Made by a program: the position numbers and the translations under genes. A stretch of 28,535 nt of DNA, taken from assembly GCA_023665325.1 (NCBI GenBank), contig JAMPED010000001.1, forward strand, positions 184,783 through 213,317, read 5' to 3'. The notes beneath the pieces are model-generated. The model was not told where the DNA came from. It did no database searches and saw only the letters and a list, made by a program, of their open reading frames with translations. The DNA is from Acetobacter sp. (GTDB taxonomy: Bacteria > Pseudomonadota > Alphaproteobacteria > RF32 > CAG-239). Of this stretch, positions 5,712-27,208 are shown one piece after another. Position 1 is the first letter of the stretch. Each line of letters begins with the position of its first letter.

Positions 5712-8700
5712 ATGACGATTAGAAAATCTATATTTCGTTTAGGCTTAACTTTATTTCTGTTTATTTTAAGCACTCAAAGTGTTTGTGCTAAGGTCAGTTT
5801 TGCTGATTTTGCATTTGAAAAAGTGAAGAATAATCGTGTGGAGTTAGTTAAATCTCTTATTGATAAGGGGTATTCGATTGATGCAGTTAATTCTGAGGGA
5901 TTGACTGCGTTATGTCAGTCTGTTCAAGCGAAGGATTATGAAACTTATCGTCGTTTGCGTCGGTTGGGGGCTAGTGCAGAGCATAAATGTATGCAAAAAC
6001 AAGATACGAAAATCGTGAACAAATTTGCATTGCAGTATTCTCCGGAAATAACAGTTTCTAAAGCTAGTGTTTTGCAAGAAAAAAGTCAAAATTTAGAGAA
6101 GTATGAAAAACTTATTCTTGGGACGGTTCTGGCTGCAGCGGCAGTAGGAACAGGGGTTGTAGCGATTGAACAAAATGATGACGATGATACTCAGATTAAG
6201 GCGTGTGATGAGGGGTTTCTGCTTGTTGGCAATGAATGTATTCCTAATACAGCTCCACCTTGTAGGGAAGGTTTTGAGTTGGTTGATGGTAAATGTCAGT
6301 TCATAAGTTGTCCTGATGGGTATATATTAGAAGGGAATGATTGTGTATCGATATGTTCGGATGATCAGGTTTGGAATGGAAATGCGTGTGTTTCTCCACA
6401 ACAATGCCCTGCAGGACAAAGATGGGATGGAACACAATGTGTAGTGATTGTTTGTCCAGAAAATACGCATTTAGTCGGAGATACTTGTGTTGCAGATGGT
6501 AATCTTAACTTTACATACGTGGGCGATGATAATCTTTATGGTGTTAACTCTGAAGATGAAGACGTTTATAATTTATATTCCGTCCCAAGTAAACCTAAAG
6601 ATGAAGCAACAATTACTTTGAGTAATAAGGGAAATGGTAACGCATACGGCGTGTATGGTATTAGCAATGTTACAAACTCGTTTGCTGTAGGTGAAGTCGA
6701 TGATGTTGTTAATACAGGCAAAAATATTGGCAATATTTCTATTACGAGTGAGGGGCGTGGAAGTACATATGGTTTATATTCGAAGATTGAAGATATTAAA
6801 CAATATAAAGAAGCTATCAATGCTCGGAGTATAAATAGTGGTATAGCATTAGGTAATATTAACATTACGCATCGGGGTGGTGGAGATGCATATGGTGTAT
6901 TTGGCGATGTACGTGCGTATAATGCGTTTGCGGCGTATGGTGGCAAATCATTTGGTAATATAACTATTCGTGGTGATGGTGATATTTATGGCATTAGCGG
7001 ATATGTTGCAGCAACGAACGCTGTTTCTCCTTTCTTTGGAAGTAGAGTTTTGGGTAATATTGATTTGTACCAGTATGGCAATAGAGATGTTTATGGAATG
7101 ATGGTTAACAAAGCTGATATTCCAGGAGCTGGAGCTGGCGATGGTAATACAGCTAGTTGGTTTGCATTTAATGCATATGCTTCTGGGGGAGATATTGTTG
7201 AGGGTAATCTAAATATTCGTAATATGGGAGATGGTAATGCTTATGGTATGTATGGCGGAAGAGAATTATATAATGCGATGTCATACGGTGGGAGAGATGA
7301 AACAACGGGTGAACCTAATGGAATTGCGCGTGGTCAAATCAATATTTTAAATGTAGGAAATGGTAACAGTTATGGTATGTATTTGCCGGAGGCTGATGCA
7401 AAAGGGTTGATTGCGAATATTAACTCTAATGGTTCAGAGTCGGTTATCAATATGGTTAATGTTGGAAGTGGAACGGCAACAGGTATGCGTGGTGGTGCTG
7501 AAACCACGATTTTGAATTCTGGCAAGATTGATATCAATAATCTTGGTTCTGGTACTGCTATTGGTATTTATGGAGAGAAAAATTCTAGAATTGAAAATAG
7601 CGGAAGTATCAATATTCATCGTGATACTTATACAGATACAGAAAGCAATGAGGTATATAGTCCAACATCTGTTTCTGGTGGAACGGCATACGGTATTTAT
7701 GCAGAAAGTGGTGCGAATGTTATTAACAGAGGGGAAATTACTATTACAGGCGCTAAGGCTGGAGAAGGAATTCATTTGGAAGATGGCGCAACTCTTGTTA
7801 ATAGAGGTACTGTTAGATTTAATGGTGTGCTGCAAAATGGAAATGATGGTATTGAAAATGCTGTGAACTTTAACGAGATGGGTGGTGAAGTTCTTTTAGG
7901 TCAAGGTGGTCGTTTTTTTGCAAAAGAGCTATCTGGAAAATTAGGTGTTTCTAAAACAACGGTGATGGATAGTTTTGAAAATGAATATGTTGTCAGTGGG
8001 GCATTGCAAGCTAAGGATGTCAGTAAGTTAGATGTATATTCTAAGTCTGCAATGTTTACAGCAGCTAAAAAAGATGATTCGGATGTTGTTTTATCTCGTA
8101 AAGAATTGAAAAATGTTCTTGAAAATGATGCTTTGGGAAAATTCTTTGATGATAACTATAATCAGAAGAATGGCGTTGAAGTATTTAATGTTTTAAAACA
8201 AGCAGAAACAGAGGCAGAGCTTAATACTGCGTCTGCTAATATGACGGGAGTGGATGTGTTACCTAACTTTAGAAAGGAAAATGCATTGGTATATCGTCAT
8301 TTAAGCCGACAGTTTAATGATAATTTGTTTAATAGGCCTGATGAGAATTATATTGGTGGTTACAAATATATTGATGTATCAATGGATAAAGATGGGGTAT
8401 TAACAGGCAGTGATGGTAAAGTTAATGCTGCATATGGGATGCTTAAAGGAAAAACTGATAATGGTATTGTCTATGGTCTTGGTGCAACGGTGGCTCATTT
8501 GGAAAGTGATTATGATAATGGGGCAAATCGGAAGAGTAATATTTTTGGTTTGTGGGCGCCAATTGGATATGATTTTAAAAATGGTACACAGTTATATTCT
8601 AAATTTTATGCTGGATATGCAGATGGTTCATATGATCGTAAGACCCAATTAGGTAAATATTCTGCGGATACAAAAGAATATCAATATGGAATGAGTAATG

Positions 8701-9149
8701 AATTACGCCATAAATTGTCATTGGGTAAAGGTTTTACTTTTGAACCTTTAGCAGAACTTAATTTGTTGGGAATTTATCAGGATAAATTTAATGAAGGGAC
8801 TGCTGCAGGTGCTTTGCACATTGATAGTGGTAATAGCATATCTGTAGAAGGTGGGTTAGGTGCATATTTATCCAAAGAAATGATTTTTAATGATGATAAT
8901 AAATTAGGTATTCAAATTGGTGGTGTTTATTATGTAGAATTTTTAGATTCTGAGGATGGTGTTGATGCTGCGATGTCTGGTATGAGTGGAAAGTATCGGA
9001 TTAAACATAAAGCCCAAGATGACTATGCTGTTTTCTCTTTAAGAGCAAATTATACATATAAAAACCTTATGCTTTATGCGGTAATTGAACAAGAAACAGG
9101 TGGAAATAAAGCATTTTCTATTGATACAGGCGTTCAATATAAATTTTAA
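5712..9149 (+). CDS. Autotransporter-like surface protein: ankyrin-like segment, Cys-rich repeats, YG-repeat passenger, beta-barrel
   Basis: This is a 1145-residue exported protein. Residues 1-26 form a signal peptide (LTLFLFILSTQSVCA). Residues about 30-95 look like one or two ankyrin repeats (ELVKSLIDKGYSIDAVNSEG). Residues about 134-152 are hydrophobic and Gly/Ala-rich. Residues 165-259 hold six CX10C units. From about 268 to 740 runs a Gly/Asn-rich passenger with a recurring G-N-G-N-A-Y-G-(V/M)-Y-G motif, probably a beta-helix, shifting to INSG/INRGEI-type repeats near its end. Residues about 880-1145 have the alternating pattern of an autotransporter barrel, ending in VQYKF with the terminal phenylalanine expected for outer-membrane assembly. 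AAGGA precedes the start. The role is probably surface display or adhesion; the ligand is unknown. The ankyrin and Cys-rich additions are atypical of classical autotransporters. Confidence 0.85.
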   Translation: MTIRKSIFRLGLTLFLFILSTQSVCAKVSFADFAFEKVKNNRVELVKSLIDKGYSIDAVNSEGLTALCQSVQAKDYETYRRLRRLGASAEHKCMQKQDTKIVNKFALQYSPEITVSKASVLQEKSQNLEKYEKLILGTVLAAAAVGTGVVAIEQNDDDDTQIKACDEGFLLVGNECIPNTAPPCREGFELVDGKCQFISCPDGYILEGNDCVSICSDDQVWNGNACVSPQQCPAGQRWDGTQCVVIVCPENTHLVGDTCVADGNLNFTYVGDDNLYGVNSEDEDVYNLYSVPSKPKDEATITLSNKGNGNAYGVYGISNVTNSFAVGEVDDVVNTGKNIGNISITSEGRGSTYGLYSKIEDIKQYKEAINARSINSGIALGNINITHRGGGDAYGVFGDVRAYNAFAAYGGKSFGNITIRGDGDIYGISGYVAATNAVSPFFGSRVLGNIDLYQYGNRDVYGMMVNKADIPGAGAGDGNTASWFAFNAYASGGDIVEGNLNIRNMGDGNAYGMYGGRELYNAMSYGGRDETTGEPNGIARGQINILNVGNGNSYGMYLPEADAKGLIANINSNGSESVINMVNVGSGTATGMRGGAETTILNSGKIDINNLGSGTAIGIYGEKNSRIENSGSINIHRDTYTDTESNEVYSPTSVSGGTAYGIYAESGANVINRGEITITGAKAGEGIHLEDGATLVNRGTVRFNGVLQNGNDGIENAVNFNEMGGEVLLGQGGRFFAKELSGKLGVSKTTVMDSFENEYVVSGALQAKDVSKLDVYSKSAMFTAAKKDDSDVVLSRKELKNVLENDALGKFFDDNYNQKNGVEVFNVLKQAETEAELNTASANMTGVDVLPNFRKENALVYRHLSRQFNDNLFNRPDENYIGGYKYIDVSMDKDGVLTGSDGKVNAAYGMLKGKTDNGIVYGLGATVAHLESDYDNGANRKSNIFGLWAPIGYDFKNGTQLYSKFYAGYADGSYDRKTQLGKYSADTKEYQYGMSNELRHKLSLGKGFTFEPLAELNLLGIYQDKFNEGTAAGALHIDSGNSISVEGGLGAYLSKEMIFNDDNKLGIQIGGVYYVEFLDSEDGVDAAMSGMSGKYRIKHKAQDDYAVFSLRANYTYKNLMLYAVIEQETGGNKAFSIDTGVQYKF
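6204..6488 (+). repeat. Six CX10C units inside the autotransporter
   Basis: Residues 165-259 contain twelve cysteines in six pairs: 165/176, 184/195, 200/211, 215/226, 232/243 and 248/259. Every pair is separated by exactly ten residues, with consensus C-x-x-G-(F/Y/Q)-x-(L/W)-x-G-x-x-C; examples are CDEGFLLVGNEC, CPDGYILEGNDC and CPAGQRWDGTQC. The regular spacing suggests disulphide-stapled mini-domains, like EGF or TIL-type modules but shorter. The spacers between units vary from 3 to 7 residues. Confidence 0.9.
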
Positions 9150-10054: not shown

Positions 10055-11566
10055 ATGAAATATTTACCGCTTTATATTTTGGCAAGTGCAGTGTTTTGTG
10101 TTAATGTGTCGTTTGCGGAATATACATATAAGGAAGATGATACCCGATTTATGAATGGGGTACTCTATGATGTAAACGGAGATCCTGTGACTGGTATATA
10201 TGAAGAGTTTTATGAAAATAATATAAAAAAAAGCCTTATGCCTTATGTTAATGGGATTTTAAATGGTTTGGGAGTTCTTTATGATGAGCAGGGGAAGAAG
10301 TCTGCAGATATGCCCTTTATTGATGGAAAAGCAGAAGGTGATGCGTTAGTTTATTATGCTAATGGGGCACTTAAAGAGAAAATACCTTATAAAAATGGTA
10401 AAGTTCAGGGGGTAATGCGGTCTTATTTTCCAAATGGTAATTTAAAAAATAAAATAACATATGATAATGGTATCCAGAATGGTCTTGCAAAAGAATATTA
10501 TGATGATGGTAAGGTTAAAGAGGTTTTTAATTATGTTGAGGGTAAAAGAAACGGTGACGCTACTGTTTATTTTTATGATGGAAGCGTTGCTGAAGGATTA
10601 AAATATAGTGATGATGAGATTGTTGGGGAACGTGTAATTTATTATAAGAGTGGACGTCCAAAATCTCGTATTCAATATATTGATGGAAAAAAGAATGGTA
10701 ATGTGCAGAATTATTATGAAGATGGAACGATAGAGTCGGTTATTCCGTATAAAGATGATGTTATTGAGGGTGAAGGAAGTTTTTATCACGAAAATGGCGA
10801 TTTGAAATTAACAGTTATGTATAAAAATAATATGCGTAATGGTTTGGCTAAGGCCTATTATCCAGATGGAAAAATCAAAGTTGCGGTTAATTATCAAAAT
10901 GATGTTAAAAATGGGGTTGAAACTGATTATTATGAGAGTGGTGCAATTAAAACGGAAATGCCCTATGTTGATGGTGTGATTAACGGTATTGGGCGCGAAT
11001 ATGATGAAAATGCGGGGTTATTGACCGAAATGACATACGTGAATGCCGTTGCTAATGGTGTGGCAAAGTTTTATGAGGATGGTAAAGTTAAAACTGAGGC
11101 AATGTATAAAAAAGGTAAAAAAAGCGGAATACAGAAAGATTTTGATAAATCTGGTAATTTATTTTCAGAGAGTATGTTTAAAAATGATATTCTTAATGGT
11201 GAATATAAAGAATTTTATAGTAATGGTAAAATTAAGTCTACAGCCTTATATGTTGCAGGTGTGCTCAATGGATTGTCGCTGATTTATGATGAAGATGGTA
11301 ATTTATCATATGAGGTTCCTTATTCGGATAATCGTAAAAATGGAAAAGTTAAGCGTTATTATCCATCAGGAGAATTGATGGGAGAAGTGACATATGAAAA
11401 AGGGCTTAAACACGGTATGTTGGATGCTTATAATTTGGATGGTACACTGATGGCTAAAGTTTTGTTTAATAAGGATGTTGCTATTAAAGGGTATAGTCTT
11501 GATCACGGTAAGCGTCCGCTTTTGATGACACCTGAAGAATTGACATTGATTAACGGGGCGTATTAA
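10055..11566 (+). CDS. Exported MORN_2/YwqK-type repeat protein, 18 tandem units
   Basis: This 503-residue protein starts with a clear signal peptide (MKYLPLYILASAVFCVNVSFA) and is otherwise almost entirely tandem 24-residue units of the form G-x-x-x-x-Y-Y-x-x-G-x-(L/I)-K-x-x-x-x-Y-x-x-G-x-x-N. These are MORN_2 repeats (PF07661), the type often annotated as YwqK-family antitoxins. I count 18 units between residues 47 and 477, then a 26-residue tail ending in LTLINGAY. Such repeats build long beta-meander solenoids. The antitoxin label is weak here: there is no adjacent toxin gene, and the signal peptide places the protein outside the cytoplasm. GAGGA precedes the start. It stands alone between two intergenic regions, with no obvious functional partner. 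Confidence 0.88.
   Translation: MKYLPLYILASAVFCVNVSFAEYTYKEDDTRFMNGVLYDVNGDPVTGIYEEFYENNIKKSLMPYVNGILNGLGVLYDEQGKKSADMPFIDGKAEGDALVYYANGALKEKIPYKNGKVQGVMRSYFPNGNLKNKITYDNGIQNGLAKEYYDDGKVKEVFNYVEGKRNGDATVYFYDGSVAEGLKYSDDEIVGERVIYYKSGRPKSRIQYIDGKKNGNVQNYYEDGTIESVIPYKDDVIEGEGSFYHENGDLKLTVMYKNNMRNGLAKAYYPDGKIKVAVNYQNDVKNGVETDYYESGAIKTEMPYVDGVINGIGREYDENAGLLTEMTYVNAVANGVAKFYEDGKVKTEAMYKKGKKSGIQKDFDKSGNLFSESMFKNDILNGEYKEFYSNGKIKSTALYVAGVLNGLSLIYDEDGNLSYEVPYSDNRKNGKVKRYYPSGELMGEVTYEKGLKHGMLDAYNLDGTLMAKVLFNKDVAIKGYSLDHGKRPLLMTPEELTLINGAY
10193..11485 (+). repeat. 18 tandem 24-residue MORN-type units
   Basis: Units run from GIYEEFYENN (residue 47) to the unit beginning GMLDAYNLDG (ending at residue 477). 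Seventeen are 24 residues long; the thirteenth (GVAKFYEDGKVKTEAMYKKG) has lost one residue. The DNA copies are clearly diverged, so this is an old expansion rather than a recent slippage product. Confidence 0.85.
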
Positions 11567-21413: not shown

Positions 21414-23027
21414 TTATTTATTTATTGCGGGGATAATTTTATTGTTTTTTAGCCACTCTTGGGCGCGCCATTTTCCTTCTGGAGTGAGAGTTAGAATGAT
21501 GGTGTTATTATCGATATATATTGCATTATGGTGGGGCCAAGGATATACCGTGTTTTGAAGATATTGTCTTAGCTCGGGGGTTAGATTTAAGATGTTTACG
21601 TCTATGTATTGCCAATAAATGTCAAAATCAGCGGCAAAAAAATCATTTGGGTAATAGAATTTATAAGCTTTTGATGGTAGATGCCACGGGATGTATGGTG
21701 CAGTTAACGTATATGAATCTGTTTTGCTACCGGTGTTAGGTAGATAATAACGGCTACGGAAATCTAAGGTGCCGCCTTGGATAAATGTGTAGTTTTTGAA
21801 TGGTGAAAAGGCGGAATTTTCTTCTATGCGGCGGAGGATTCGTTCTGTGAGGTTTGTTTCAGCTTTGAAGCCAAATTGCCAAACTTTTGATGCATAAGCG
21901 ATGGTATGTATATTATAAAAAGTGAGAGAAAATAGTGAGATAAAACCAATGTTTCGAATGAAATGAGTGGAGGCACGCAAGAAGATGCTGGCAGCATAGA
22001 TATAAATATAAATGAGTCCAAAAAAGTCTATTCGTGGTTCATAAAGTACATACACGCTGTTTTGAGCGGCGAAAAGAGTGATGAGAGAAGAGAGGATTAG
22101 CCCACTGATAGCACAGAAGAATAAAATGAGGTTAGACAGGCGTTTGGGGATGTAGAACAGAAGTATGAAGATGGCTGTTATGGTTAAAATTAGCCACGTA
22201 TATTTATAAAAAGCAGAGATGAAACTGGTGGTTATTACAAATTGTCCATATATTGCGGAGGGGAGCAGGTTTATTTTTTCTATTAAAGTATTAAGGTTGA
22301 TGCTGACAGTATTATATGTGTCATATTGTAGGTGATATTTTTTTAGTTCAGATTGAATGAAGAGAAATAATATCAGCGAGAAAATGATGGCAACAATATG
22401 AGGAGTATATTTATGAATAAGCGTTTTAAATGCTAGTTTTTTGAAGCATATATCATTAAGAATAAGAGTGAAGAATAAGATGCAAATAAGATTAACTACA
22501 GGAGGATAACCACCGAGGGATAGGGTAAATAATATGGTGGTAATAGGTAGGCTTAATTTGGTTGGCTTGTAGGTTAAGAGCCAATATCCGCCGATGATAA
22601 ATAATGTCCAAGAAAGGCAACTTAAGGTGAGAAATGCAAAATATAGCCACGAAAGAGTGTATGGTGCAGTGATAAGATTTAATCCTAGGAGGATAAAAAT
22701 ATATTTTTTTTGAGGTATTTCCCAGAGTTTGAATAGTAAAATAGCAGCGAATGAGAAGATGGCGAGGCTTAATGTTAAAGTTAGTATGGGGAGAATTTTT
22801 CCACCAAATAGGAGAACTGGGAGAAAGAATTGAGAGAAACGTCCCTCAAATACGCCACTCCAGAGCGGGGTATATTCTTTCATCCATCCCCAGTCGTGGT
22901 TTCCCCACAGGAAATTTATTAAAAAAGGTAGATAGGATAAGGTTGAAAACACTGCAAGCCATAGCCAGCTTTTAAAAATAAAGGTGGTTTGGTTAAGAGG
23001 GGGAATGGCTTGGTTACATTGTGTCAT
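21414..23027 (-). CDS. GtrII-like multispanning glycosyltransferase, paralog 1
   Basis: This 537-residue inner-membrane protein has about ten or more hydrophobic helices and a C-terminal soluble domain of about 140 residues. Near the N-terminus it has WGNHDWGWMKEY, SGVFEGRFSQFF and GGKILPILTL. The same pattern occurs in the two other large proteins of this cluster and fits the Glucos_trans_II (GtrII) family of GT-C enzymes, where acidic and arginine residues in the first periplasmic loop are essential. Such enzymes move a sugar from polyprenyl phosphate to a surface glycan on the outer face of the membrane. The C-terminal part shares RI..RIE, RYY, a W-P motif and IYIDNNTIILTLTPEG with its paralogs. 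It starts one base after the GtrB-like gene. Acceptor and sugar are unknown. Confidence 0.82.
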   Translation of the reverse strand: MTQCNQAIPPLNQTTFIFKSWLWLAVFSTLSYLPFLINFLWGNHDWGWMKEYTPLWSGVFEGRFSQFFLPVLLFGGKILPILTLTLSLAIFSFAAILLFKLWEIPQKKYIFILLGLNLITAPYTLSWLYFAFLTLSCLSWTLFIIGGYWLLTYKPTKLSLPITTILFTLSLGGYPPVVNLICILFFTLILNDICFKKLAFKTLIHKYTPHIVAIIFSLILFLFIQSELKKYHLQYDTYNTVSINLNTLIEKINLLPSAIYGQFVITTSFISAFYKYTWLILTITAIFILLFYIPKRLSNLILFFCAISGLILSSLITLFAAQNSVYVLYEPRIDFFGLIYIYIYAASIFLRASTHFIRNIGFISLFSLTFYNIHTIAYASKVWQFGFKAETNLTERILRRIEENSAFSPFKNYTFIQGGTLDFRSRYYLPNTGSKTDSYTLTAPYIPWHLPSKAYKFYYPNDFFAADFDIYWQYIDVNILNLTPELRQYLQNTVYPWPHHNAIYIDNNTIILTLTPEGKWRAQEWLKNNKIIPAINK

Positions 23028-23028
23028 T

Positions 23029-23973
23029 TTAATCCAAAGTTTTATCTATGATATAGGTTGGTCGGTTTTTAACTTCAATGAATATACTGGCAATGTACTC
23101 ACCTATAATGCCCATAAAGAGAATGGTAATCCCACTAAAAAAGGTAATGGCACTCATTAGTGATGTCCAACCAATAATGGTAGAACCATTGAAATAAGCG
23201 ATAACAGTCCAAAGCATTAAGAAGAAACTTAATGTGGAAATGAGTACTCCGGAGAGGGTGATGATATGTAAAGGTACAGCAGAAAAACTAGAGATACCTT
23301 TTAAGGCGAATAATATCATTTTTTTTAAGGGATATTTGGTTGTGCCAGCTTCGCGTTTTTTACGGTCATAATAAACATTGGCTGATTTGAAACCAATAAG
23401 GGGAACAATGGCTCGTAAAAATAGATTTTTTTCTTTAAATTCAGCCATAGTTTGGACTGCACGTTGGCTTAGAAGACGAAAATCTGCGTGGTTGGAAACA
23501 AGCTCAACTCCTAATATTTTCATTATTTTATAAAACCATAGAGCTGTATTGCGTTTGAAAAAACTGTCTGTATCTCGTCGATTTCTTACACCATAGACGA
23601 TTTCGGCACCATTATAGTATTTTTTTATCATATTTTTAATGACGGTAGGATCATCTTGTAAATCGGCATCTATAGTGATGTAAATATCTGCTTTAGTGGA
23701 ATACAATCCGGCGAGTAGGGCTTCTTGATGTCCAAAATTACGAGATAGGCATATTCCTTTGATATGTTCGTGTTTTTTATTTGCTACTTCAATGATTTGC
23801 CACGTTTTATCTTTGGATCCATCGTTTACAAAAACGAGTTTACTTGCGGGTGAGATTAGTTTTTCTGTTATGAGATTTTTATAGATTTTATTTAGTGTGT
23901 TAATACTGTCGGGAAGTATCTCTTCTTCATTATAACACGGGACAATAATTGCTAATTCGGCAAGTTTTTTCAT
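23029..23973 (-). CDS. GtrB-like polyprenyl-phosphate glycosyltransferase (GT2 family)
   Basis: This 314-residue enzyme should transfer a sugar from a nucleotide donor to undecaprenyl phosphate on the cytosolic face. The GT2 domain (about residues 1-230) shows IIVPCYNEEEILPDS, FVNDGSKDKTWQ, the DxD region TIDADLQDDP, GVRNRRDTDSFFKR and NHADFRLLS. Two C-terminal membrane helices follow (about 235-260 and 270-295), ending IGEYIASIFIEVKNRPTYI. This is the layout of GtrB and dolichol-phosphate mannose synthase relatives. It sits between three GtrII-like genes and is followed after one base by the first of them, so it probably supplies all three. No GtrA-type flippase gene is in the window. AAGGAAGG precedes the start. 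The sugar cannot be read from sequence. Confidence 0.93.
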   Translation of the reverse strand: MKKLAELAIIVPCYNEEEILPDSINTLNKIYKNLITEKLISPASKLVFVNDGSKDKTWQIIEVANKKHEHIKGICLSRNFGHQEALLAGLYSTKADIYITIDADLQDDPTVIKNMIKKYYNGAEIVYGVRNRRDTDSFFKRNTALWFYKIMKILGVELVSNHADFRLLSQRAVQTMAEFKEKNLFLRAIVPLIGFKSANVYYDRKKREAGTTKYPLKKMILFALKGISSFSAVPLHIITLSGVLISTLSFFLMLWTVIAYFNGSTIIGWTSLMSAITFFSGITILFMGIIGEYIASIFIEVKNRPTYIIDKTLD

Positions 23974-24050
23974 TGGCGCCTTCCTTTACCACTGGTCAGG
24001 TTAATTTCTGATGTTATAGCATAGAAAGCGTAATTTTTTTATTAACGTAT

Positions 24051-25616
24051 TTATATTTTCGGATATAAGGTGCGGATTTTTTCGCGAAATTCATCAAGTC
24101 CGGCTTGATTATAGATGATAATAATGATGTCGTCATTAACAAAAATAGATGAAGGATGGGGGAAGGGCTTGGCTTCTGTTATAAAGTAGTGGTATATTTC
24201 CGGTGTGATGTCTGAAGGGAAAATCGTGGTTTTGTGGTTAATATAGTTGTGGGGGGAATAAAATTCTATTAGGTTTGCTCCTTGCCACATTGCGAGGTAG
24301 GGTAAAGTGAGCAAAAATACATCGTTTATATCATACTTACCTTGGTAATAGTTAGGACGCAAAGAAATGTCACCAACCTGATAAAAACGATATTGATGGT
24401 TGGGATTAAAGGCAGGGTGGTTTTCAATCCTTTCGGTGATTCGATCTAAAATTGCAAATTCGGCATCAAAACCTTGTTTCCATACTTTTTGAGCACGGTA
24501 ATCATTGATGATGTTTAACGGGATGAGGAAAAACATAAATATTAGAGCTAAAGAGTGACTGATATTTGCTTTATATTTTAATAGTAAAGCTAAGAAAAAG
24601 GCATATAAAAATGCGAATCCGTAAAAATCTATGCGAGAAACGTATTCTGTATGAGGAATGACGAGAAATGTGGTGAGTGCAGTACTCCATATTGTTCCAA
24701 ATATAAAAACAATAGTTAATGTGCGGTGTTTCCAGTTTTGGGCTGTGAAGAGAGCTCCTATGATGGCGCAAAAGCTCATTAGAGCAAGAAGAGTTTTATA
24801 ACCTAATTCCATAAATGGGGTGGTTATGAAAAATTGGCGAAAAGCTATTTGGATTGTGGAAATAAATTTTGCAGGTAGTTCATTTAATGGCGTTGTTTCA
24901 AGATTATAAACATTATCAGTGGGTAGTATTTTGAGCGTTAGTTTGAAGAGTAGAGCGGCTACAAGGATGTTTAATATGGTGTATCTGTAAGTTTGGAAGA
25001 TGTTATATAATGTTTTATTTTCAAAAAGATATGATATGACTATTCTTCCGCTGAGACAAACAAAAAATGTGTTTATAATAGGGGGATAGCCGCCGAGCGT
25101 GGTGTAAAAACATAAAATAGCAATAAAGGAAAGTGCTTTTTTGTGAGATAATTTGGATGTTAGCTCAGAGAGATAAAGACCAAGAATGGCAAGTAATGTC
25201 CACAAAAGACAGCTGATGGTGATAAATGAAAAATACATCCAAGAAAGTGTATAAGGCTCAGTGGCGAAAAAAGTGATAAAGAGAATGTAATTAAGGCGAT
25301 TTGTTGGAATTTGCCAATATTTAGCAAGAATCCAAAGAGCGATAGTTAAAAATGTAAAGCCGATAAGATTATTCAATATAGGTAGAATCTGTCCGTTAGT
25401 TAGTAGACGGTAAGGAATAAATTGAGTAAAACGTCCTTCAAATAATCCTGATGACAGCAATAATTCAGTTTTGACAAAAGCAACATCGTGATTACCCCAC
25501 ATAAAAGTGAGACTGTGATATAAAAAAGCAAAGTTGATAATTAAAAAACTTATGTATAGGGCGGAAAGGTCAGTTTGAGAAGGATACAGAGATAATTTTT
25601 GCAGTAGTTTTTTCAT
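24051..25616 (-). CDS. GtrII-like multispanning glycosyltransferase, paralog 2
   Basis: This 521-residue polytopic protein is built like the other two. It has the N-terminal motifs MWGNHDVAFVKTEL, SGLFEGRFTQFIP and NGQILPILNNL, about ten membrane helices, a VWKQGFDAEFAILDRI junction and a C-terminal soluble domain with RIENHPAFNP, YQVGDISLRPNYY and PHPSSIFVNDD. In the first loop it has HDV where the other two have HDW, and NGQ where they have GGK or AGK. Its start overlaps the stop of the third paralog by one base (TAATG), so those two are translationally coupled. A gap of 77 bases without a terminator separates it from the GtrB-like gene. It is probably a GT-C transferase using a polyprenyl-linked sugar; the acceptor is unknown. 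Confidence 0.82.
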   Translation of the reverse strand: MKKLLQKLSLYPSQTDLSALYISFLIINFAFLYHSLTFMWGNHDVAFVKTELLLSSGLFEGRFTQFIPYRLLTNGQILPILNNLIGFTFLTIALWILAKYWQIPTNRLNYILFITFFATEPYTLSWMYFSFITISCLLWTLLAILGLYLSELTSKLSHKKALSFIAILCFYTTLGGYPPIINTFFVCLSGRIVISYLFENKTLYNIFQTYRYTILNILVAALLFKLTLKILPTDNVYNLETTPLNELPAKFISTIQIAFRQFFITTPFMELGYKTLLALMSFCAIIGALFTAQNWKHRTLTIVFIFGTIWSTALTTFLVIPHTEYVSRIDFYGFAFLYAFFLALLLKYKANISHSLALIFMFFLIPLNIINDYRAQKVWKQGFDAEFAILDRITERIENHPAFNPNHQYRFYQVGDISLRPNYYQGKYDINDVFLLTLPYLAMWQGANLIEFYSPHNYINHKTTIFPSDITPEIYHYFITEAKPFPHPSSIFVNDDIIIIIYNQAGLDEFREKIRTLYPKI

Positions 25617-27208
25617 TAGTTTTGCTCATTTAAGGTTGTTAATTGTTGACTTAGTATATTTTTTCCTTCTGGAGTTAGAGAAAAAATGCAATATTTGTTG
25701 TCTAAATAAATGGCACTTGTGGATGGCCATAAGGTTTGCGGATTTGTTATGAAAGTAATGAGTTCGGAGGTAATCTCATTTAAATTGATTGGAACTTGAT
25801 TGGCGGCAAAGTCTTGTGATGCGTAAAAGTTATAGTGTTCACTAGCAGTCCAATAACGTCCAAATGGAGTTTTTAAGGTGTAATATCCATATTTTTCTGT
25901 TGGTGAAGTTGTGTAATATCTGGGACGTAAAGAAATCTCACCAGCTTGGATGATGTTGTATATGGTGTTTGGGGTATAATTGGGATGACTTTGTATTCTA
26001 TCGGTGATGCGTTGCTGTAGTAAATCTTCAGCTTTGAAACCGAGGATAAGCGTTTTTGAATATGATAAATTGAGTGTTATATTAAGCCAAAGTAGAGTGC
26101 CTGTTATCAACAAAAATATGTTACGTATCCATATTGTGGTATGTTTTTTGATATAGAATAGGCAAAAGAGTAATAAGGTTGGGAGGCTATAAAAATCTCC
26201 ACGAACCATAAATGCGGTTGGATCATTGATGGTAAAATAGTTGTTTGCTTCTTGGTAAGAAAGCCATAGAGGAAGTTTTAGTGTAAGTAGAAGTGTTGGT
26301 ATTAGAATTATGAAAAGAAATAATTTTCTTTTTTTACGGTAATTTATAGCTAATAATCCGCAAAAACTGAAGATTATAAGAGTGGTTAGCATTTTAAAAC
26401 TTAAAGGGAAAAATGGTTGTGTTTGTAATAAACTTTGTAGAGATGATGTTAGTGTTTCAGGAATCTTGAAAAATAGGTTGAGGGTTGTTTCTGTTTGGCT
26501 GTTATAGAGTGAAATCATTAAGTTTTGTGTTTTTAGCCAATTATATATACAAGGAAGTGGTAGCAAAGCAAGGATAAAGCTGATGACAAAGGGGGAAAGT
26601 TTACGAATTAAATCTTTAATGTGTGAGGTCGTGGTGAGTGCGTTGGCTGCATATAAACAAGCGGCAACAGCATACATTGTTATTGATGCCGGATAGCCTC
26701 CTGCTGCTATGAATAATAAAAATGCGCTTAAGAGAATGTGTGCAAGATAGTGATTAGTTTGGGTGTTTTTTGCGGCAATGAGGGAGAAAGTTATGAATAA
26801 ACTCCAACTGAGTAAACTAAAAGTGATGAAGTGGAAATATAGGATTTCATTGATGAATGGAAGAGTTGCGATAGTAATGAGGAATAGTTTATCCTCCAAA
26901 TCGGTGGGGGTAAATTTGAAAAAATGTGTGCAGAGTAAAATTAGTGCTAATGTGTATAGCAAGAAACCCAAAGTTATATTCAAAATAGGGAGGATTTTTC
27001 CAGCAAGGAATAGATTTGATAAAATATATTGGCTAAATCTTCCTTCAATCAGTCCGGATTTTAGGTTAGAGTCATAAATAAGGGGTAACCAATCGTGGTT
27101 TCCCCACGTGAAATGAAATAGTAAAGGGCTAAAGCATAGGCATAATGCGCTGAATGTCCAAAGCCAGCAGGATATTTCGTTTTTGCTGAGGTGGAAAAAA
27201 TGCGGCAT
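25616..27208 (-). CDS. GtrII-like multispanning glycosyltransferase, paralog 3
   Basis: This 530-residue first gene of the glycosylation cluster is again polytopic, with motifs TWGNHDWLPLIYD, SGLIEGRFSQYI and AGKILPILNITLG near the N-terminus. The C-terminal soluble domain has RITDRIQSHPNYTP, IIQAGEISLRPRYY, WPSTSAIYLDN and FSLTPEGKN. Overall identity to the other two paralogs looks modest outside these motifs, so the duplications are old and the specificities may differ. Its upstream region faces the divergent DUF192 gene; I see only a weak minus-strand -10 (TATAAA near 27223). Downstream it overlaps paralog 2 by TAATG. The role is inferred from the GtrII resemblance and the neighbouring GtrB-like gene. 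Confidence 0.82.
   Translation of the reverse strand: MPHFFHLSKNEISCWLWTFSALCLCFSPLLFHFTWGNHDWLPLIYDSNLKSGLIEGRFSQYILSNLFLAGKILPILNITLGFLLYTLALILLCTHFFKFTPTDLEDKLFLITIATLPFINEILYFHFITFSLLSWSLFITFSLIAAKNTQTNHYLAHILLSAFLLFIAAGGYPASITMYAVAACLYAANALTTTSHIKDLIRKLSPFVISFILALLPLPCIYNWLKTQNLMISLYNSQTETTLNLFFKIPETLTSSLQSLLQTQPFFPLSFKMLTTLIIFSFCGLLAINYRKKRKLFLFIILIPTLLLTLKLPLWLSYQEANNYFTINDPTAFMVRGDFYSLPTLLLFCLFYIKKHTTIWIRNIFLLITGTLLWLNITLNLSYSKTLILGFKAEDLLQQRITDRIQSHPNYTPNTIYNIIQAGEISLRPRYYTTSPTEKYGYYTLKTPFGRYWTASEHYNFYASQDFAANQVPINLNEITSELITFITNPQTLWPSTSAIYLDNKYCIFSLTPEGKNILSQQLTTLNEQN

What the first reader, a model, noticed from the sequence alone, without database searches (positions are those of the whole stretch)
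21414..27208. Three GtrII-like GT-C paralogs served by one GtrB-like enzyme
Three membrane proteins of 521-537 residues share an N-terminal WGNHD...SG(L/V)(F/I)EGRF(S/T)Q...(G/N)(K/Q)ILPIL pattern and a related C-terminal soluble domain with R-x-x-YY and a W-P or F-P motif. They surround a single GT2/GtrB-like gene, with TAATG or one-base junctions. Classical gtr serotype-conversion loci have one GtrA flippase, one GtrB and one GtrII-type enzyme. Here there are three old, diverged transferases and no GtrA in view. This suggests one lipid-linked sugar pool used for three different acceptor positions or acceptors, with flipping done elsewhere or by one of the paralogs. The basis is visible motifs plus family knowledge; the division of labour is inference.
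Basis: partly seen in the sequence, partly recalled or inferred. Interest (0 to 1): 0.75.

Follow-up and report, generated by a model that had tools for sequence, protein, structure and literature searches.

The report
One sugar-lipid maker, three outward transferases
An uncultured bacterium carries a conserved gene set in which one enzyme probably loads a sugar onto a membrane lipid and three different sister enzymes probably attach that sugar to molecules outside the inner membrane; it is a new arrangement of a known kind of machinery, and what is being decorated is unknown.

The parts
25616..27208 (-). Paralog C, GtrII-like GT-C transferase, 530 aa; first gene of the set
   Evidence: (PF14264 46.1 bits), model pLDDT 93.2, GT-C fold, own group 100/100
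24051..25616 (-). Paralog B, GtrII-like GT-C transferase, 521 aa; the most conserved of the three; its start overlaps the stop of C by one base (TAATG)
   Evidence: (PF14264 38.1 bits), model pLDDT 95.7, GT-C fold, own group 100/100, mean pairwise identity 0.639, junction
24030..24045 (-). Conserved intergenic element TTAATAAAAAAATTAC in the B-GtrB gap; possible promoter or operator for gtrB, function unknown
   Evidence: alignment of window + 16 relatives; exact in the window and in 15 of 16 relatives (G022 lacks it); in 5 whole genomes 6 exact hits, 4 of them here
23029..23973 (-). GtrB-like polyprenyl-phosphate glycosyltransferase (GT2), 314 aa
   Evidence: PF00535; NCBIfam PgfS 240.5 bits, below its cut-off of 500; Synechocystis GtrB sll0501 194 bits against 124 for ArnC; D94, D96, R122, D157, R200 conserved
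21414..23027 (-). Paralog A, GtrII-like transferase homologous to B and C, 537 aa
   Evidence: (PF14264 25.3 bits, below cut-off 30), 32% identical to B and 30% to C, own group 100/100 and joined to C at 98/95; not modelled

Best explanation
This is a conserved three-component (Gtr-type) periplasmic glycosylation system with an expanded last step. The GT2 (GtrB) loads a sugar onto undecaprenyl phosphate on the cytoplasmic side; an unlinked GtrA-family protein flips it; A, B and C, three GT-C-type enzymes, each transfer that sugar to a different acceptor or acceptor position in the periplasm, probably lipo-oligosaccharide core or envelope proteins rather than a polymeric O antigen. Shown here: gene content and order, family, fold of B and C, old separate orthology of A, B and C, conservation of the set, and a conserved GtrA elsewhere in relatives. 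Inferred: enzymatic activity, a shared donor, the sugar, the acceptors, and the role of that GtrA.
For: C-B-GtrB-A in the same order in 15 of 16 relatives with a GtrB at 74-80% identity; the 16th (G020) ends after GtrB-B on a 3275-base contig. A, B, C each one group of 17 rows (16 relatives plus the window), 100/100. GtrB functional residues conserved. GT-C folds for B and C. GtrA type c8 in 9 of 9 plus 7 of 7 genomes. In some relatives outside the clade a GtrA does lie near a 53-58% GtrB: within about 1-3.5 kb in 3 of 3 genomes searched for both (G010-G012) and overlapping it in G136. Shared core but paralog-specific conserved residues enriched in the C-terminal domain: 7 of 16 eligible columns against 4 of 56 elsewhere, p 0.0015 at the 95% threshold; 9 of 22 against 14 of 78, p 0.028 at 90% (the domain boundary was chosen).
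Against: Co-location does not prove a common donor. A second GtrB-like GT2 occurs in 9 of 9 relatives, and there are 5-8 PF14264 matches per genome, so 2-5 lie outside the cluster. GtrA c8 sits beside another GtrB-like gene in 6 of 16 genomes and may serve that one. Of 14 GtrB loci outside the clade with about 1.5 kb of flank, only 2 (L141, L151) showed a GtrA-like neighbour by BLAST, so linkage of GtrA to this GtrB type is not general at that distance. Sugar and acceptor are untested. The window's own genome is not held, so GtrA and LPS genes were seen only in relatives.
Confidence: 0.6

Rival explanations
1. Assembly line: A, B and C act one after another on the same acceptor, each adding one sugar of a short oligosaccharide built outside the membrane, as mycobacterial arabinosyl- and mannosyltransferases do.
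For: All three kept together and C-B closely coupled, gap -8 to +10 bases in 15 genomes, fit a pathway in which each step is needed. Precedents: several GT-C Araf transferases using one donor (passages of PMC11127046), and MptA and MptB homologs clustered with another GT-C gene in Micrococcus luteus (passages of PMC3229680).
Against: Unequal divergence (mean pairwise identity B 0.639, A 0.523, C 0.468) may mean separate acceptors or unequal importance. No order of action can be read from sequence.
Confidence: 0.3
2. The three proteins use different lipid-linked sugars, made by this GtrB and by other GT2 enzymes of the genome; their co-location reflects duplication and inheritance only.
For: A second GT2 of 37-39% identity in 9 of 9 relatives, overlapping an MFS-type gene in G003; a 745-747 aa PF14264 protein has its own neighbouring GtrB-like gene in G005 and G008, so other donor-transferase pairs exist.
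Against: Order kept in all 15 relatives where it can be read; 24 residues at least 95% conserved in all three families, as a common donor site would give; in the six regions read around the second GT2 (G001, G002, G003, G006, G007, G009) no ORF matched A, B or C by BLAST at 1e-8.
Confidence: 0.15
3. Classical phage-type O-antigen serotype conversion locus that lost its gtrA.
For: Same protein families as gtrA/gtrB/gtr(type); GtrA and GtrB are interchangeable among Shigella serotypes (abstract in passages of PMC3259042).
Against: PF04932 (Wzy/WaaL) over cut-off in 0 of 15 relatives, with weak partial matches in 2; PF02397 in 1 of 15; PF01943 over cut-off in 5 of 15, of which two (G002, G007) fall inside an ORF resembling the MurJ of G003, two (G005, G008) lie next to the second GT2 where MurJ lies in the regions read, and one (G019) was not examined. 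Housekeeping neighbours recJ, DUF502, metK and old vertical-looking groups.
Confidence: 0.08

Closest known systems
Shigella/Salmonella gtrA-gtrB-gtr(type) O-antigen glucosylation loci
   Same: GtrB-type GT2 plus a GtrII-like GT-C enzyme next to it; a GtrA-family protein in relatives' genomes
   Different: Three GT-C paralogs, no local GtrA, apparently vertical chromosomal inheritance, and no Wzy/WaaL-type gene over cut-off in 15 relatives
Mycobacterial Emb/Aft arabinosyltransferases and MptA/MptB mannosyltransferases
   Same: Several GT-C enzymes drawing on one polyprenyl-phosphate sugar; GT-C fold; Micrococcus luteus has MptA, MptB and another GT-C gene clustered (passages)
   Different: Different GT-C families, a different donor route for arabinose, a different envelope
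Streptococcus mutans pgfS-pgfM1-pgfE-pgfM2
   Same: One membrane GT2 (PgfS is the best NCBIfam match, 240.5 bits) with two related membrane proteins in one cluster (passages of PMC5856776)
   Different: PgfM1 is of the PMT-2 subfamily; the window's GT2 is under the PgfS cut-off; the system modifies surface proteins of a Gram-positive
Listeria/Bacillus GtcA with the GtlA-GtlB type LTA glycosylation system
   Same: A GtcA protein (GtrA family, recalled) serving more than one glycosylation pathway (abstract of PMC7389260)
   Different: Teichoic acids as acceptors; other transferase families (recalled)

Membership tests
Pfam PF14264 (GtrII), paralogs B and C | Whole-protein score over the curated cut-off of 30 bits | tested here: met
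   C 46.1 and B 38.1 bits
Pfam PF14264 (GtrII), paralog A | Whole-protein score over the curated cut-off of 30 bits | tested here: not met
   A 25.3 bits, E 1e-05. A is a clear paralog of B and C and many of its orthologs carry the domain; it is filed as a homolog of the family, not as a member by the cut-off
GT-C superfamily | GT-C membrane fold | tested here: met
GT-C superfamily | Conserved acidic residue in the first extracytoplasmic loop | tested here: inconclusive
   D of WGNHD (90% or more) and E of EGRF (95% or more in all three) lie between the first (14-30) and the next long (79-100) helix of the B model; sidedness and catalytic placement were not examined
GtrB (polyprenyl-phosphate glycosyltransferase) | Functional residues D94, D96, R122, D157, R200 of Synechocystis GtrB | tested here: met
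   All five identical by reading the alignment with the residue numbers in passages of PMC4728340
GtrB (polyprenyl-phosphate glycosyltransferase) | GT-A domain followed by two transmembrane helices | tested here: inconclusive
   PF00535 at 9-174 and alignment over 5-310 of 314 residues to sll0501; helices were not predicted separately
GtrB (polyprenyl-phosphate glycosyltransferase) | Uses UDP-glucose | not testable with these tools
   Sugar specificity cannot be read from these data
Classical gtrABC locus | gtrA, gtrB and one gtr(type) together | tested here: not met
   Three GT-C genes; no gtrA beside the cluster in the scanned window proteins; GtrA unlinked in relatives
Classical gtrABC locus | Modifies O antigen | tested here: inconclusive
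   LpxC 15 of 15 but PF04932 over cut-off 0 of 15; ABC-type O-antigen export was not tested

The most novel reading that the evidence does not exclude
In a clade of uncultured, apparently gut-associated Alphaproteobacteria without recognisable O-antigen polymerase or ligase, the Gtr system was rebuilt from a phage-style decoration device into a core pathway: one GtrB and one unlinked GtrA feed a family of old GtrII paralogs (three in the cluster, at least two more groups elsewhere) that build a cell-surface glycan sugar by sugar in the periplasm.
Probability: 0.3. Interest if true: 0.65.

Novelty: new variant of a known kind. Interest (0 to 1): 0.45.

Why it matters
It shows GtrII-type enzymes as fixed, apparently vertically inherited chromosomal genes kept as a set of three in bacteria that seem to lack ordinary O antigen. 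If right, it ties an uncharacterised GT-C paralog set to a single donor enzyme, so that one deletion (gtrB) against three single deletions would separate 'one pool, several acceptors' from 'one chain, several steps'.

Tried and rejected
Genome of the window: none held; relatives were used. Flipping by a paralog: no evidence found; B and C both model as GT-C enzymes. PDB relatives by sequence profile: none (two designed proteins at E about 0.2). Rfam at gathering scores and tRNA scan of the window: nothing. CtrA-like box in the B-GtrB gap (a recalled resemblance): a loose GTTAA-N7-TTAC pattern with one mismatch is not enriched in the window (10 found, 12.08 expected), so not claimed. RNA structure in the gap: z -2.8 in the window alone, not tested in relatives, not claimed. 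Promoter scan: 27 found, 29.5 expected, so the 11-of-12 site just before recJ is weak evidence. Prior description of this 3+1 set: not found in the searches, which cover only open-licence full texts and of which I saw the listings; [quoted passage not shown] the folds found here do link it.

Papers: PMC3259042, PMC4728340, PMC5856776, PMC7801869, PMC3688519, PMC11127046, PMC3229680 and PMC12826051 were seen as found passages only; PMC7389260 as outline and abstract; PMC1184546 was not held and nothing from it is used. All others appear only in listings.

Rows left out. Tree: it holds the A1-profile hits plus the window's three; PF14264 matches outside the cluster in G004, G006, G009, G017, G020, G022, G023 and G024, and most of those in G008 and G016, were not fetched, nor one of G021 and those of G042, G044, G051, G077 and G124; L109 and L167 were fetched but gave no hit to the A1 profile; L099 was skipped as a second copy of L002. 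So the further paralog groups are under-sampled; fragments P0091-P0094, P0207-P0208 and P0313-P0317 were not taken, and for A only the 120 best of 237 hits were listed; the length filter removed none.

Change after re-checking: the linkage of GtrA to GtrB outside the clade is weaker than I first wrote (2 of 14 loci within about 1.5 kb), and confidence was lowered from 0.62 to 0.6.

Full report
What is there. On the minus strand the window encodes, in order of transcription, C (25616-27208), B (24051-25616), a GtrB-like GT2 (23029-23973), A (21414-23027) and then recJ, a DUF502 protein and metK. C and B overlap by one base (TAATG); GtrB and A are one base apart; B and GtrB are separated by 77 bases. 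The nearest records are titled Alphaproteobacteria, mostly as MAGs or uncultured, two of them from deer gut samples; the window's own genome is not held.

Conservation of the 3+1 set. A scan of genome contigs with GtrB kept 80 loci; the nine at 76-80% identity all carry C-B-GtrB-A in this order before recJ. Two more distant alphaproteobacterial loci checked in the same way, L010 and L011, do not. A search of the 153 genomes held for the order gave 48 with a GtrB match at E 1e-80 or better: 16 at 74-80% identity and 32 at 50-58%. Of the 16, 15 have all of C, B, GtrB and A; G020 ends on a 3275-base contig after GtrB-B. Two further genomes without such a GtrB match have A and C on short contigs (G021) or neither (G018, 0.8 Mb). 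PF14264 occurs in 26 of 153 genomes of the order; 18 of these (the 16 plus G018 and G021) have 2-9 matches, the other eight have 1-4. In 385 genomes sampled from the class, the A1 profile at E 1e-10 finds only G003 itself and one other, G352.

Age. In a tree of 81 proteins, A, B and C each form one group of 17 rows with support 100/100; A and C join at 98/95 (root for drawing only). So the paralogs split before these genomes diverged. C has diverged most (mean pairwise identity 0.468) and B least (0.639), A 0.523. Two further GtrII groups recur elsewhere in several of the genomes: one near squalene/phytoene-synthase and M16-peptidase genes, one near clpB and plsX-fabH genes (neighbours by clustering; Pfam on one example each; groups).

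The missing GtrA. All clade genomes searched have GtrA-family proteins away from the cluster: 9 of 9 and 7 of 7. One type (c8) is in all 16; the first nine are 68-89% identical to each other and the other seven 75-97% identical to one of them. In the fetched flanks gat-type genes are seen near it in 14 of 16 and uvrD in 12 of 16. In 6 of 16 (G004, G005, G006, G008, G023, G024) it stands beside a YdjC gene and another GtrB-like gene; in the other 10 no GtrB-like gene was seen in the flanks, about 5 kb for five of them and about 1.5 kb for five. Outside the clade, a GtrA lies within about 1-3.5 kb of the 53-57% GtrB in 3 of 3 genomes searched for both (G010-G012) and overlaps it in G136; but in 14 such loci with about 1.5 kb of flank only L141 and L151 showed a GtrA-like neighbour. 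G010-G012 have no PF14264 match. A plausible reading, not a shown one, is that c8 or another GtrA flips the lipid made by this GtrB. A GtcA protein acting on two lipid-linked sugars is known from Listeria (abstract of PMC7389260), and a gtr operon with a damaged gtrB alongside a second operon has been discussed in Salmonella (passages of PMC3688519).

Division of labour. Across 99 A, 90 B and 91 C sequences, 24 residues are at least 95% conserved in all three. Of 72 columns conserved at 95% in two or more paralogs, 11 are fixed differently, 7 of 16 in the C-terminal domain (B 402 onward) against 4 of 56 elsewhere (p 0.0015); six of them lie in B 426-448. At 90% it is 23 of 100, 9 of 22 against 14 of 78 (p 0.028), eight of them in B 427-449. 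The boundary was set. This fits a common donor site and different acceptors, but proves neither.

Acceptor. LpxC is in 15 of 15 genomes; PF04932 (Wzy/WaaL) is over cut-off in 0 of 15, with two weak partial matches; PF02397 in 1 of 15; PF01943 over cut-off in 5 of 15, two of them inside a MurJ-like ORF, two by position probably the same, one unexamined. The built-in controls found all four families in E. coli and Caulobacter. The genomes are drafts of unstated completeness, and ABC-type O-antigen export was not tested. So lipid A core or proteins are likelier acceptors than a polymeric O antigen, as an inference.

Regulation. The B-GtrB gap holds an element, TTAAYAAAAAANTTAC, exact in the window and in 15 of 16 relatives; G022 lacks it. 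In five whole genomes there are six exact matches, four of them here and two within ORFs; the reversed pattern gives none. It may be a promoter or operator for gtrB; its function is unknown.

Known precedents. One donor feeding several GT-C enzymes is known in mycobacteria (passages of PMC11127046 and PMC3229680), and systems with multiple candidate epimerases or GT-Cs were noted in Xanthomonas and Bacillus (passage). The window is therefore a new variant: the GT-C enzymes are GtrII-like and kept as three fixed paralogs, the flippase is unlinked, and the usual O-antigen acceptor seems missing.

Noticed in passing
window 24030-24045 (minus strand), B-GtrB gap: A short A/T-rich element is conserved in the window and relatives (exact in 15 of 16) and, in five genomes, its exact matches outside ORFs are all at this locus (4 of 6 matches); its role is unknown.
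   Followed up: partly
L111:2949-6123 and L117:3702-6873: In G005 and G008 a 745-747 aa PF14264 protein sits beside its own GtrB-like gene (41% identical to the window's), a separate one-plus-one module.
   Followed up: no
L082:2-1057: An ORF joins ankyrin repeats to a GtrA domain, followed by three related ORFs of 535-548 aa; the one tested (L082:1044-2651) has no Pfam match.
   Followed up: no
L118:3995-6254: The second GtrB-like GT2 overlaps an MFS-type gene and lies divergently from murJ; ORFs of like size and order are seen in five other relatives.
   Followed up: partly
window 5712-9149: An 1145-aa protein with an autotransporter beta-domain and weak, below-cut-off DUF5874 and ankyrin matches.
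   Followed up: no
window 10055-11566: A 503-aa protein with strong MORN_2 repeat matches.
   Followed up: no
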